Source: Ignavibacterium sp.
Lineage (GTDB): Bacteria > Bacteroidota > Ignavibacteria > Ignavibacteriales > Ignavibacteriaceae
DNA length: 39,271 nt
Direction: 5' to 3'
Assembly (NCBI GenBank): GCA_025056745.1
Contig: JANWVQ010000084.1
Span: 1-39,271, forward strand
In this document: positions 35,818 to 39,271 of the stretch, one piece after another
Layout: the number at the start of each line of letters is the position of its first letter
Position numbering within the stretch: position 1 is the first letter of the stretch
The notes under the pieces: model-generated
Told to the model about the DNA's origin: nothing
Seen by the model: the letters and a program-made list of their open reading frames with translations, nothing else
Database searches by the model: none
Translations under genes and position numbers: made by a program

Positions 35818-36723
35818 TCAGGCTTTACCAAAAGTCAAAATACTTTTCACAATGTGACGCGCAATTGAAGGGTTTTCCTTTAATCTTCTAATAGAATAAG
35901 CATACCAATCTTTGCCAAAAGGAACATAAATTCTGATTTTATAACCATCATTGTTTATCTTATCCCTTAAATCTTCTCGCACTCCTAATAACATTTGAAA
36001 TTCAAATTTATCTTTAGGAATGTTAAGTTCTTTTATGAGCTTATATGATTCATCAATTAGATATTTATCGTGTGTTGCAATTCCAACATAATTTCCATCA
36101 ATAAACATTTGTTTTAGAATTCTCATAAAATTATCTCGAATGGCTTGTCTGTCCTTCAATGCAATTGTCGGTGGTTCGACATAAATTCCTTTACACAGTC
36201 GATAATTCGTACCAATTTTATTGAGAATTATGACATCATTCAAAGATCTTTTCAGGTAAGCTTGAATTACAATGCCCACATTCTTAAACTCTTGAAAAAC
36301 TCTTTTATAAACTTCAATTGTGTTATCTGTTGTTGAAGAGTCCTCCATATCGATTCTTACAAAGCTTTGAATCTCTTTAGCTTTTGCAACAATCTCACGA
36401 ATTTGTTCGTATGCAAAGTCTAAATTTATATTAAGCCCCATTTGAGTTGGTTTAATAGAAAGATTTGCCTTTAATTTGAATTTATCAATCGCTTCTAAAA
36501 CTTCAATTGCTTGATTCTTGTAATGAATAGCCTCTTGACGATTTTGAATTGCCTCACCTAAAACATCTAAGGTTGCATAAATACCTTTAGAATTTAGTTG
36601 TTGAACAGTCCTAATACCATCCTCTAAGGTATCTCCAGCAATATATCTTTTTGAAAAAAATCCTACTATAGGTTTTGGCATTAAGGTAACAGCTTTGACA
36701 ATTGCGTTATTTATTATACTCAC
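35818..36723 (-). CDS. proline dehydrogenase, monofunctional
   Basis: A 301-residue FAD-dependent enzyme that oxidises proline to pyrroline-5-carboxylate, usually passing electrons to the quinone pool, so it is linked to the menaquinone made by the men genes. SFVRIDMEDSSTTDNTIEVYKRV, IQAYLKRSLNDV, RLCKGIYVEPP, GIATHD, EFQMLLGVRED and the C-terminal YVPFGKDWYAYSIRRLKENP match the PRODH barrel; the paired arginines in the last motif bind proline. The start is GTG 36723, supported by a GGAG 5 bases upstream (36732-36729). No P5C dehydrogenase is fused or adjacent. It heads the tsaD-aroQ-mltG-Ig run. Confidence 0.93.
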   Translation of the reverse strand: MSIINNAIVKAVTLMPKPIVGFFSKRYIAGDTLEDGIRTVQQLNSKGIYATLDVLGEAIQNRQEAIHYKNQAIEVLEAIDKFKLKANLSIKPTQMGLNINLDFAYEQIREIVAKAKEIQSFVRIDMEDSSTTDNTIEVYKRVFQEFKNVGIVIQAYLKRSLNDVIILNKIGTNYRLCKGIYVEPPTIALKDRQAIRDNFMRILKQMFIDGNYVGIATHDKYLIDESYKLIKELNIPKDKFEFQMLLGVREDLRDKINNDGYKIRIYVPFGKDWYAYSIRRLKENPSIARHIVKSILTFGKA

Positions 36724-36746
36724 AATAACTCCAAAAAATTGTGTTT

Positions 36747-36777
36747 CAAATTTACTGATAGGATATGATCAAAAAAA
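36747..36777 (-). promoter_or_regulatory. candidate promoter of the proline dehydrogenase operon
   Basis: On the minus strand an exact TAAATTTG (36754-36747) lies 23 bases before the GTG start, identical to the element before glgA. A TTTTTTTG (36777-36770) stands 15 bases upstream, closer than the usual 19-21, so only the -7-like part is convincing. Confidence 0.4.
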
Positions 36778-36824
36778 TGAATTGAAATTTGAAAAGGTAA
36801 TATGATGGAAATAATTCTAGTAAT

Positions 36825-37058
36825 TTATCCTTCGTAGTCCAAAATCAATGATTTAGTGTGTCCGCAACTACAAACGAATTTAATTTCTCTTATATTATTG
36901 TTTTCATCTTTGTTAAGTATGATTTTAACATTGTCCATTGAATCTTCTTCAAAAGATACCTGAACTTTTCCGACTACTTTTGTATGCTCACCTTTTATAA
37001 CTTTTTTCTTACTACTTAAATTATTGGTATTAAAAATTTCAAATCTCATTTCTTCCAT
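36825..37058 (-). CDS. hypothetical 77-residue protein with C-terminal CxCGH motif
   Basis: I do not recognise this protein. It is short, mostly predicted beta with a charged N-terminus, and ends EIKFVCSCGHTKSLILDYEG, where Cys63, Cys65 and His67 could bind metal or be redox active. An AGGTGA ribosome site 5 bases before its ATG and a 7 bp gap after cheB show that it is a real, coexpressed gene. Position after cheA and cheB suggests a link with chemotaxis or a related signalling array, but there is no sequence proof. No signal peptide or membrane segment is visible. Confidence 0.75.
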   Translation of the reverse strand: MEEMRFEIFNTNNLSSKKKVIKGEHTKVVGKVQVSFEEDSMDNVKIILNKDENNNIREIKFVCSCGHTKSLILDYEG

Positions 37059-37065
37059 AACTCAC

Positions 37066-38136
37066 CTAAAACAGTTTATTGATTTGACTAGAAATTGAAT
37101 CTAATGGTAATATAGCGTCAGCTAGATTATTATCAACAATTGCTTTTGGCATTCCATAAACAACACTGCTCTCTTCATCCTGAGCGACAGAATAACCACC
37201 AAGTTGTTTTAATCTTTTAACAGCTTCTAAACCATCTTTTCCCATACCTGTCATAATTATAGCAAAGACGTGCTTTCCATAATAATCAATTAAAGAATTT
37301 AATGTTACATCAACAGATGGTTTATAGAGGGAATCAGCTGGTTGTTCGGTGATTTTGATGTTGTATCCTCCAAAGTTTTTTTCAATAATCATATGTTTAC
37401 CACCTTGCCCAATATATATTTGTGAAGGTACTATTTTCTCACTATCCTCAGCTTCTTTTACAGCTATTTGACTCATTTTATCCAATCTATCAGCAAGTGA
37501 TTTTGTAAATATTGGTGGCATATGCTGAACTATAAAAATTGGGACGGGGATATTTTTATTTAATTCTGGAATAACTTTTTGAAGTGAAAGAGGACCACCG
37601 GTAGAGATTCCAATCAAAATTGATTTTATTTCGAAAGATGGTTTTACAAAATTGCTTAAAGCTATACTTGTTTTTTTTTCTTGTGGTTCTGATATTTTGC
37701 CGTGAATTCGACTTAATCGGAAAGCTAAAGATTTTTGATTGTAAATAGTTTTAATCTTATTTATCAATTCCTTCTGAATATTCAGAAGACCAGAGTTTAT
37801 ATTAACCATATCTTTGGCTAAGAAATCAACTGCACCCAACGATAAGGCCTTGAGAGTAGTTTCCGTTCCTTCAGCAGTCAATGAACTAAGCATTATAACT
37901 GGTGTTGGACATTCTGTCATAATTTTTTTAAGAGTATCCAAACCATTCATAACCGGCATTTCAACATCAAGGGTAACAATATCTGGTTTTAATTTCAACA
38001 ACATCTCAAAACCTTCTTGTCCATTCTTTGCAGTGCCAACAACATCGATAACACCACTGCTTTCGAGAATATAAGAAATCGATTTTCTCATAAAAGCAGA
38101 ATCGTCGACTACAAGAACTCTAATTTTTTTATTCAT
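37066..38136 (-). CDS. cheB: CheB, chemotaxis protein-glutamate methylesterase
   Basis: A 356-residue two-domain response regulator that removes methyl groups from chemoreceptors and deamidates glutamines. The receiver domain has Asp11/Asp12 in VVDDSAF and the phosphorylated Asp57 in DIVTLDVEMP. The methylesterase domain carries the triad Ser178 (GISTGGP), His205 (IVQHMPP) and Asp301 (MTGMGKDG), equivalent to Ser164, His190 and Asp286 of Salmonella CheB. The linker of about 40 residues between domains is normal. It begins 4 bp after cheA. cheR and receptor genes are not in the window. Confidence 0.97.
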   Translation of the reverse strand: MNKKIRVLVVDDSAFMRKSISYILESSGVIDVVGTAKNGQEGFEMLLKLKPDIVTLDVEMPVMNGLDTLKKIMTECPTPVIMLSSLTAEGTETTLKALSLGAVDFLAKDMVNINSGLLNIQKELINKIKTIYNQKSLAFRLSRIHGKISEPQEKKTSIALSNFVKPSFEIKSILIGISTGGPLSLQKVIPELNKNIPVPIFIVQHMPPIFTKSLADRLDKMSQIAVKEAEDSEKIVPSQIYIGQGGKHMIIEKNFGGYNIKITEQPADSLYKPSVDVTLNSLIDYYGKHVFAIIMTGMGKDGLEAVKRLKQLGGYSVAQDEESSVVYGMPKAIVDNNLADAILPLDSISSQINKLF

Positions 38137-38140
38137 CTGA

Positions 38141-39271
38141 TTAAAGATTAATTATTTCTGAAACATCTAAAATTAAAATTACAGAGCCATCACCCATTAT
38201 TGATGAACCTGCAATACCTGGGATTTTTCCAATTAAATCACTTAAAGATTTAATAACTATTTCTTTCTGTCCAACCAATCCATCGACTTCCAAACCAATT
38301 TGTTTTTCAGCCACATTTACAATGACTACATATTGATATTCGCCATTAAAACCATTTAGTTTTTCTTTCAGAATTTTTTCTTTTAGCGATACTATCGGAA
38401 TTACTTTATCACGTAATTTAATATTCGGCTTTTGATTTACATAATAGATATAATCTTTATGAACTCTAATAACTTCTACTACCAAATTAAGAGGTATTAC
38501 AAATTGTTCAGTACTAACTTTAACGACAAGTCCACTTATTATTGCAAGAGTCAGAGGTAATCTAATTGAGATTTTTGTTCCCTTCTTAACAACAGAGTCT
38601 ATTTCAATCGTACCACGGAGTTTTGTAACGTTTGTTTTCACCACATCCATACCAACACCACGCCCAGAAATATTTGTCACAACTTCTGCTGTAGAAAATC
38701 CAGGTAGGAAGATCAGATTTAATATTTCTTGCTTTGATAATTCATCTGCTCTTTCTTTTGAGATTAAACCTTTACTAATAGCTTTGTTTTTTATTAGTTC
38801 AGGATCTATACCTTTACCGTCATCTTCTATGGTTATGACAACAGTGTTTCCCTCCTGAGCAGCAGAGAGTTTTATTGTTCCAACTGGATCTTTACCATTT
38901 GCTATTCTTGTTTCTTCACTTTCTATTCCGTGATCAACACTGTTTCTAATTAAGTGAACTAATGGATCGTTTATTTCTTCAATTAATGTTTTATCTAATT
39001 CTGTATCTTCACCTTCAATTATAAGATTGATTTTTTTATTAGCAATTTTAGATAAGTCTCTCACCAAACGTGGATATTTATTAAATACCTTTCCAATCTT
39101 AACCATCCTAACTTTCATAACAAGCTGTTGCAATTCGTTTGTCATCATATCAATTAGTTTTGTTGTTTCAGCGAGTTCGCGAGCTAATTTAGTTCCCTCA
39201 TACTCAGCTGAAACCTCCATATTAATTTGAGCTAATCTGTTTCTACCAAGAACTAATTCGGAAACGTTATT
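38141..39271 (-). CDS. cheA: CheA, chemotaxis histidine kinase (5'-partial)
   Basis: The C-terminal 376 residues of CheA. The frame is open to the window edge and the first visible residues, VSELVLGRNRLAQI, are the start of the P3 dimerisation helix (usual form VGELVIARNRL), so the HPt and P2 domains lie outside; the ATG at 39220 is internal. The kinase domain P4 has the N box DPLVHLIRNSVDHGIE, G1 EDDGKGIDPE and G2 ISGRGVGMDVVKTN. P5, a CheW-like regulatory domain, fills the last 140 residues and ends VILILDVSEIINL. cheB follows 4 bp later. Substrate phosphotransfer and coupling to receptors are known for the family. Confidence 0.97.
   Translation of the reverse strand, partial: NNVSELVLGRNRLAQINMEVSAEYEGTKLARELAETTKLIDMMTNELQQLVMKVRMVKIGKVFNKYPRLVRDLSKIANKKINLIIEGEDTELDKTLIEEINDPLVHLIRNSVDHGIESEETRIANGKDPVGTIKLSAAQEGNTVVITIEDDGKGIDPELIKNKAISKGLISKERADELSKQEILNLIFLPGFSTAEVVTNISGRGVGMDVVKTNVTKLRGTIEIDSVVKKGTKISIRLPLTLAIISGLVVKVSTEQFVIPLNLVVEVIRVHKDYIYYVNQKPNIKLRDKVIPIVSLKEKILKEKLNGFNGEYQYVVIVNVAEKQIGLEVDGLVGQKEIVIKSLSDLIGKIPGIAGSSIMGDGSVILILDVSEIINL

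What the first reader, a model, noticed from the sequence alone, without database searches (positions are those of the whole stretch)
36825..37058. Unrecognised CxCGH protein at the end of the cheA-cheB operon
The 77-residue protein has a good ribosome site and a 7 bp gap to cheB. Its only notable motif is CSCGH near the C-terminus, half a zinc ribbon, so it might dimerise through metal or sense redox state. Chemotaxis operons usually carry cheW, cheD, cheR or cheX at this position, none of which it resembles. It is a candidate for a new accessory element of the array.
Basis: partly seen in the sequence, partly recalled or inferred. Interest (0 to 1): 0.5.

Follow-up and report, generated by a model that had tools for sequence, protein, structure and literature searches.

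The report
Flagellum-linked small zinc-knuckle protein family
A tiny protein encoded right after the chemotaxis gene cheB belongs to an undescribed family that, in the bacterial class examined, turned up almost only in genomes with flagella and even in some without chemotaxis genes, so it looks like a part or regulator of the flagellum and not of the chemotaxis sensor array.

Summary
The ORF is real and conserved, with the start, ribosome site and 7-nt gap to cheB as described. It matches no Pfam or NCBIfam family above a cut-off. Homologues occur across the window's class (Ignavibacteria, inferred from record titles). CxC is present in 112 of 112 distinct homologues collected; the His of "CxCGH" is not conserved. 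cheB lies directly upstream in 78 of 78 named-assembly loci and flgB downstream in 71. It follows the flagellum, however, not chemotaxis: 91 of 114 FliG-positive class genomes have it, 0 of 180 FliG-negative ones, and 0 of 57 with CheB but no FliG. Four flagellated genera include genomes with no detected CheW-domain protein or CheB that keep it; in one it is as constrained as flgB. Best reading: a small cytoplasmic flagellar accessory or regulatory factor with a flexible N-terminal docking tail and a three-stranded C-terminal sheet carrying one CxCG knuckle, probably completing a zinc site by dimerising. Its step may be the sigma-54 switch of the flgB operon (inferred). "Accessory element of the array" is not favoured. 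Six searches of open-access papers listed no description of the family.

The parts
36825..37058 (-). ORF of the 77-aa CxCG protein (finding)
   Evidence: homologues
37061..37067 (-). Shine-Dalgarno-like AGGTGAG, overlapping the cheB stop codon
   Evidence: sequence
36861..36872 (-). CSCG knuckle (residues 63-66); both Cys invariant in the alignments made here
36990..37001 (-). VIKG (residues 20-23), the place of the N-terminal 'GN-x-IK' consensus; several distant members have IPAE-like letters there
37066..38136 (-). cheB, directly upstream
   Evidence: PF01339 at 37081-37620
38141..39271 (-). cheA 3' part (cut by the contig end)
   Evidence: PF01584 at 38147-38533; cheA by homology
36724..36824 (-). 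Downstream gap; lacks the flgB sigma54-type promoter that follows this gene in most relatives
   Evidence: sequence printed
35818..36723 (-). Proline dehydrogenase-like gene that takes the place of flgB here
   Evidence: Pfam PF01619

Best explanation
A flagellum-specific accessory or regulatory protein, spread through the window's class (Ignavibacteria), normally encoded directly behind cheB with overlapping or touching frames, so probably translated with it. Shown: in the class sample it occurs only with FliG; it is kept in four genera in genomes without detected CheB or CheW domains; it is strongly constrained; CxC is invariant; a three-stranded C-terminal sheet with the CxCG at its last turn is predicted. 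Inferred: two chains pair their CxC motifs around one zinc ion; the flexible N-terminal tail with its conserved patches docks on a flagellar partner; the step it serves is flagellar regulation or assembly, most likely the sigma54-activator two-component step that turns on the flgB rod-hook operon, rather than the receptor array.
For: FliG versus protein in the class: 91/114 with FliG, 0/180 without; CheB+FliG- 0/57. Within the family (80 genomes) the two sets differ only at G016 and G012, whose contigs break at this gene; seven genera hold both states and agree apart from those two, both in g6. Flagellated genomes without a CheW-domain or CheB hit that keep it: G002, G006, G007 and G106, G326, G336; in the first genus its identity (62-75%) and dN (0.14-0.26) match flgB and fliE. 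It sits behind a histidine kinase plus sigma54-activator response regulator in five loci of families f21 and f27 (L208, L214, L219, L221, L225, the first and last of one genus; Pfam domains shown for L219 only, the other regulators 61-78% identical to it), two more have cheR between (L217, L218), and the chemotaxis-free genus carries an activator 48-51% identical to these in the same cluster. In relatives its stop codon is followed at 14-35 nt by a conserved element and then a sigma54-type promoter of flgB. CxC in 112/112. C-terminal sheet in two models seeded with different sequences. No conserved CxC- or CxxC-type pair in 16 neighbouring gene families.
Against: 23 of 114 FliG-positive genomes lack it, so it is not needed for flagella as such. 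Six flagellated genomes without CheB or CheW lack it. Where the cluster is broken but cheB is present it stays with cheB (window clade, L209, L210). Among FliG+ genomes it is commoner with CheB (85/102) than without (6/12) (not corrected for phylogeny). Absence of che genes in draft genomes (G326, G336 and the g3 drafts) could be missing sequence; G106 is one contig. The link to the sigma54 activators is by gene order only, in a minority of genomes, and in f17 g70 it lies by ATP synthase genes. Zinc and dimer are untested; pTM is only 0.43 and 0.39.
Confidence: 0.5

Rival explanations
1. Chemotaxis accessory: it binds CheA, CheB or CheY and tunes the array or the CheY-motor coupling.
For: cheB is directly upstream with gaps of -44 to 48 nt (74 of 78 by rule, the other 4 overlap more). 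It stays with cheB in the broken clusters seen that still have cheB. In L213 and L215 it lies directly behind cheA, in L176 behind cheY. 85/102 of FliG+CheB+ against 6/12 of FliG+CheB- genomes have it.
Against: 0 of 57 CheB+FliG- genomes have it; flagellated genomes without any CheW-domain or CheB hit keep it, in one genus under measured constraint. Seven of eight inspected che loci of flagellated genomes that lack it have the same cheR-cheY-cheY-CheZ-cheA-cheB order, in whole or in part where the stretch is cut.
Confidence: 0.2
2. Switch or export-gate ligand: the N-terminal 'NVIK' stretch mimics the FliH N-terminus and docks on whatever FliH binds there, so the protein competes with or tethers FliH.
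For: 9 of 16 FliH proteins of the same clusters have MSx[VI][IL]K at the start; the alignment consensus here has GN-x-IK.
Against: A four-residue match; 7 of 16 FliH differ in it, and several distant members have IPAE-like letters instead. No significance test was made. That the FliH N-terminus binds FliN and FlhA is recalled, not looked up.
Confidence: 0.1
3. Redox or metal sensor: the CxC pair toggles between dithiol or metal-bound and disulfide and so adjusts motility to redox state.
For: Two invariant cysteines and in most members no others (88 of 111 CxCG homologues have no further Cys).
Against: CxCG at a hairpin turn is a usual form of a structural zinc knuckle (recalled); the weak sequence matches include ribosomal L31 and coronavirus PLpro zinc fingers (E 0.5 and 0.88).
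Confidence: 0.12
4. Not a functional gene: a chance ORF or a passenger between cheB and flgB.
For: Tiny size; missing in 23 of 114 flagellated genomes.
Against: dN/dS near 0.01 in the unsaturated congener pairs; kept away from both neighbours in several families.
Confidence: 0.01

Closest known systems
FlgZ (HP0958, DUF164 zinc ribbon) of Helicobacter pylori
   Same: Zinc-motif protein tied to flagella and sigma54: it protects RpoN from turnover (PMC3372290, abstract and outline seen)
   Different: FlgZ carries two CXXC motifs in one chain; this family has one CxC, and no DUF164 match was listed
Ribosomal protein L31 zinc knuckle
   Same: CxCG motif; weak profile matches in 2-3 of 39 members
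   Different: L31 supplies a second Cys pair in the same chain (recalled); none here, and no member was shown to reach the cut-off (best E 0.0012)
Coronavirus PLpro zinc finger
   Same: The only two PDB sequence matches listed, fvCsCG against FVCKCG, at E 0.5 and 0.88
   Different: Two CxCG stretches in one chain; here there is one per chain, hence the dimer idea. Not significant, no homology claimed
Flagellum-associated two-component systems (FlgSR, FleSR, FlrBC)
   Same: In some families the gene lies behind a PAS histidine kinase and a sigma54-activator response regulator
   Different: This protein has neither a receiver nor a kinase domain; any link is through gene order (PMC7064773, abstract and outline seen; the name FlgSR is recalled)
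CheW, CheD, CheR, CheX at the end of che operons
   Same: Gene position
   Different: No match to any of them listed in Pfam or NCBIfam

Membership tests
FlgZ / DUF164 zinc ribbon | two CXXC motifs coordinating zinc in one chain | tested here: not met
   The window protein has two Cys only, as CxC; 107 of 111 CxCG homologues have at most one further Cys; no such Pfam match among the families listed for 39 members
FlgZ / DUF164 zinc ribbon | works with sigma54 | not testable with these tools
   Only gene order and the neighbouring flgB promoter point that way
Ribosomal protein L31 | Pfam PF01197 match | tested here: not met
   2 of 39 members, best E 0.0045; not listed for the window protein
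Che proteins (CheW, CheD, CheR, CheC/CheX) | Pfam or NCBIfam domain match | tested here: not met
   none listed
FlgM | Pfam PF04316 match | tested here: not met
   Not listed for 39 members; a separate flgM-like gene occurs in the chemotaxis-free genus (E 0.0015, below cut-off)
Homodimeric zinc protein | Cys4 zinc site shared by two chains | not testable with these tools
   Inferred from CxC in 112/112 and no conserved CxC- or CxxC-type pair in 16 neighbouring families
Known fold in the PDB | significant structural match | tested here: inconclusive
   No Foldseek match at E <= 0.001 for either model; best VIA Z 5.5, rmsd 2.6, 54 aligned, to OspA, below the typical best Z of unmatched models that the tool states
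Flagellar accessory protein | found only with a flagellum | tested here: met
   91/114 FliG+ and 0/180 FliG- genomes of the class; in the family sample one exception, G012, whose contig ends inside the gene
Flagellar accessory protein | loss alters flagellation or swimming | not testable with these tools
   needs a mutant

The most novel reading that the evidence does not exclude
The family is a new flagellar checkpoint device: a zinc-bridged dimer, translated with the last chemotaxis gene, whose tail reads the state of the early basal body or export gate and whose folded end acts on the sigma54-activator two-component system that opens the flgB rod-hook operon, coupling che-operon expression to hook assembly in Ignavibacteria.
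Probability: 0.15. Interest if true: 0.75.

Novelty: new variant of a known kind. Interest (0 to 1): 0.52.

Why it matters
Flagella are among the best-studied bacterial machines, so an undescribed protein that in 294 sampled class genomes never occurs without FliG, and is kept where no chemotaxis genes are found, is an unusually clear lead to a missing part or regulator. The lineage is poorly known experimentally, and the gene could be tested with a single deletion.

Tried and rejected
Array accessory: weakened by presence in flagellated genomes without CheW-domain or CheB hits and absence from CheB+FliG- genomes. His as a metal ligand: H in only 6 of 111. Second Cys pair from a neighbour: no conserved CxC- or CxxC-type pair in 16 families at the 80% level; FliI has three separate conserved Cys, and FliH, CheA, CheR, the HEAT protein and CheB one each; for CheB only the part from residue 151 on was looked at. 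Known fold: nothing significant for two models. Known family: Pfam, NCBIfam and PHROGs. The most frequent weak match is the NCBIfam cytidine deaminase model NF005314, in 16 of 39 members with best E 8e-4; the window protein scores 16.5 bits against a cut-off of 131. Viral homologues: none confirmed. 'Next to fliI' in family f17: rejected; the neighbouring gene is an ATP synthase epsilon chain (PF02823, shown for L206), so the fliI label that my scripts gave there is taken as a hit to the related F1 beta chain (inferred). A sigma54 regulon by whole-genome pattern: not shown. Six genomes gave 6 pattern matches and the reversed control pattern gave 4; four of the 6 lie before flgB (G000, G059, G047 and G043 by their place just behind this gene), two do not. 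Literature: searches listed no paper that by title or abstract start describes this family; they cover open-access PMC papers only. The Ignavibacterium album genome paper was not held. PMC3534657 and PMC6338057 were seen only as passages (the second says that the flagellar genes of I. album form one cluster); PMC3372290 and PMC7064773 as abstract and outline.

Rows set aside before the counts: five of the 119 FliG hits (G155, G194, G307 and G316, whose only FliG_C-like matches lie in 628-683-aa frames; G264, below the cut-off), and one of the 92 matches (G231, E 8.5e-4, which reads like a CDGSH iron-sulfur protein; that motif is recalled). The genomes without a match are not all listed by the tool (155, 182 and 115 unlisted); their absence is read from the lists of matching genomes. 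The list of CheB places is cut, so for the genomes missing there adjacency was read from fetched loci.

Limits: homologues were collected with a profile in which CxC weighs heavily. Whether flagellated members of the phylum outside the class have the protein was not tested: one search found 49 of 395 genomes, all in the class, one of them weak (G135, E 0.002), but FliG was not counted there. Other phyla were reached only by the scan, whose patterns came from order-level sequences; its 78 loci overlap with the G-handle genomes. The class name comes from the record titles; no call names the window's genome. G064's copy has a TGA inside the match.

Full report
WHAT IS THERE. The ORF at 36825-37058 (-) is as described: 77 aa, ATG, an AGGTGAG that ends 2 nt before the ATG, 7 nt from cheB. 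The window is a whole contig (C79) of a 2.74-Mb, 185-contig genome. The 78 named relatives carry titles such as Ignavibacterium, Melioribacter, Melioribacteraceae, Ignavibacteriales and, for some MAGs, Bacteroidetes or Chlorobiaceae.

IT IS A REAL, CONSTRAINED GENE. In the same family 36 of 80 genomes (own included) have a relative at E <= 5.4e-16, and one more copy (G012) is cut by a contig end. Among the three congeners whose dS is 0.6-1.2, dN/dS is 0.009-0.017; most other pairs are saturated. Of 112 distinct homologues collected by profile all have CxC and 111 have CxCG; the residue after it is Q in 63, E in 24, K in 8, R in 6, H in 6 and another in 4. In a 39-sequence alignment only C63, C65, G66 and Y75 are invariant, in one of 30 more distant rows only the two Cys.

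GENE ORDER. In the family the usual order is MCP - HEAT-repeat gene - cheR - cheY - cheY - CheZ - cheA - cheB - this gene - flgB - flgC - small gene - fliE - fliF - fliG - fliH - fliI - fliJ. In 78 loci from named assemblies (some are the same contigs as the G-handle genomes) cheB is directly upstream in 78: 74 by the rule, with gaps of -44 to 48 nt, and 4 with a longer overlap; flgB follows in 71. The window clade (G000, G048, G050) is an exception: its flgB operon is on another contig and a proline dehydrogenase gene follows. Across the class cheB is directly upstream in 68 of 85 genomes with both genes; 17 have it elsewhere and 6 have no CheB.

FLAGELLUM, NOT CHEMOTAXIS. In 294 class genomes, 91 of 114 with FliG have the protein and 0 of 180 without; by CheB, FliG+CheB+ 85/102, FliG+CheB- 6/12, FliG-CheB+ 0/57, FliG-CheB- 0/123 (five FliG rows and one protein row were set aside as told under Tried and rejected). 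Relatedness inflates such a table, but inside the family seven genera (g3, g6, g8, g11, g16, g25, g29) hold both states and agree, apart from two cases in g6: the G016 contig starts at flgB, so the place of the gene is missing, and the G012 contig ends inside this gene; that the missing part of G012 held fliG is inferred. Flagellated genomes with neither a CheB nor a CheW-domain hit that keep it are G002, G006 and G007 (one genus), G106 (a single contig), G326 and G336, that is, four genera; drafts may miss genes. In the first genus it is as constrained as flgB and fliE (62-75% identity against 59-74% and 65-73%; flgC and fliG are more conserved, fliH is at 62-64%). Two more CheB-less genomes that keep it, G217 and G242, do have CheW domains. 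Against this reading, six flagellated genomes without CheB or CheW lack it (G102, G181, G303, G309, G319, G332), and f10 and f18 have the che operon but not this gene, so it is dispensable.

REGULATORY SETTING. Of 63 gaps to flgB of 60-200 nt, 50 hold TGGCA-N5..7-TTG and 51 hold TTARCCA, against 0.16% and 2.7% of mononucleotide shuffles; where both occur (42 gaps) they are 56-59 nt apart, and the -24-like element starts 33-51 nt before flgB. This looks like a sigma54 promoter with an upstream activator site (pattern recalled). It goes with flgB, not with this gene: the window's own genome has it on C5, ending 28 nt before the flgB ATG, and the gap after the gene in the window lacks it. It was not found in the three g3 loci. 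A genome-wide pattern search was no better than modest: 6 matches against 4 for the reversed control. So in most relatives flgB probably starts its own unit behind this gene. In five loci of families f21 and f27 the gene follows a histidine kinase and a sigma54-activator response regulator (L208, L214, L219, L221, L225; Pfam domains shown for L219), and in two more cheR lies between (L217, L218); the chemotaxis-free genus has a related activator, 48-51% identical, in the same cluster.

STRUCTURE. AlphaFold2 gives pLDDT 80 and pTM 0.43 for the window protein, nearly all beta. For a distant member it gives a three-stranded C-terminal sheet (block means 95, 92 and 89 over its last 30 residues) after a poorly ordered N-terminus, pTM 0.39. 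The CxCG sits at the last turn in both. No significant PDB match. The weak sequence matches include zinc sites of similar shape: L31, and PLpro fingers at E 0.5 and 0.88; the most frequent one is a cytidine deaminase model (16 of 39, best E 8e-4, far under its cut-off).

HOW IT PROBABLY WORKS (inference). The tail docks on a flagellar partner and the sheet dimerises by pooling two CxC pairs around zinc. Given the sigma54 setting and the precedent of FlgZ, a zinc protein that protects RpoN (PMC3372290, abstract), regulation of the flgB step is the most likely place, ahead of the array, the export gate or redox sensing.

VERDICT. The proposed array role is unlikely.

Noticed in passing
L054-L131 gaps between this gene and flgB; G000:C5:1268-1338 (L235): Conserved TTARCCA element and sigma54-type promoter 56-59 nt apart upstream of flgB (both in 42 of 63 gaps); not found in the chemotaxis-free genus g3
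   Followed up: partly
L034-L052, gene of about 80 aa between flgC and fliE (e.g. L039:9618-9884): Second conserved small flagellar-operon protein (15 of 19 loci), ending like SGKLSGVKIGSLIDMRG; the one member scanned has no Pfam match
   Followed up: no
L034-L052, gene of about 465 aa before cheR (e.g. L039:1685-3097): A HEAT-repeat protein regularly precedes cheR in this che cluster (15 of 19 loci)
   Followed up: no
L034, L035 (G002, G006): In a flagellated genus without CheB or CheW hits the che region is replaced by an flgM-like gene, kinases, a sigma54 activator and response regulators with HDOD and HD domains
   Followed up: partly
G000:C77:556-1083: A second CheB catalytic domain of the same genome lies in a 1228-aa open frame; frames of 900-1500 aa with this domain occur in other relatives too, also without FliG
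   Followed up: no
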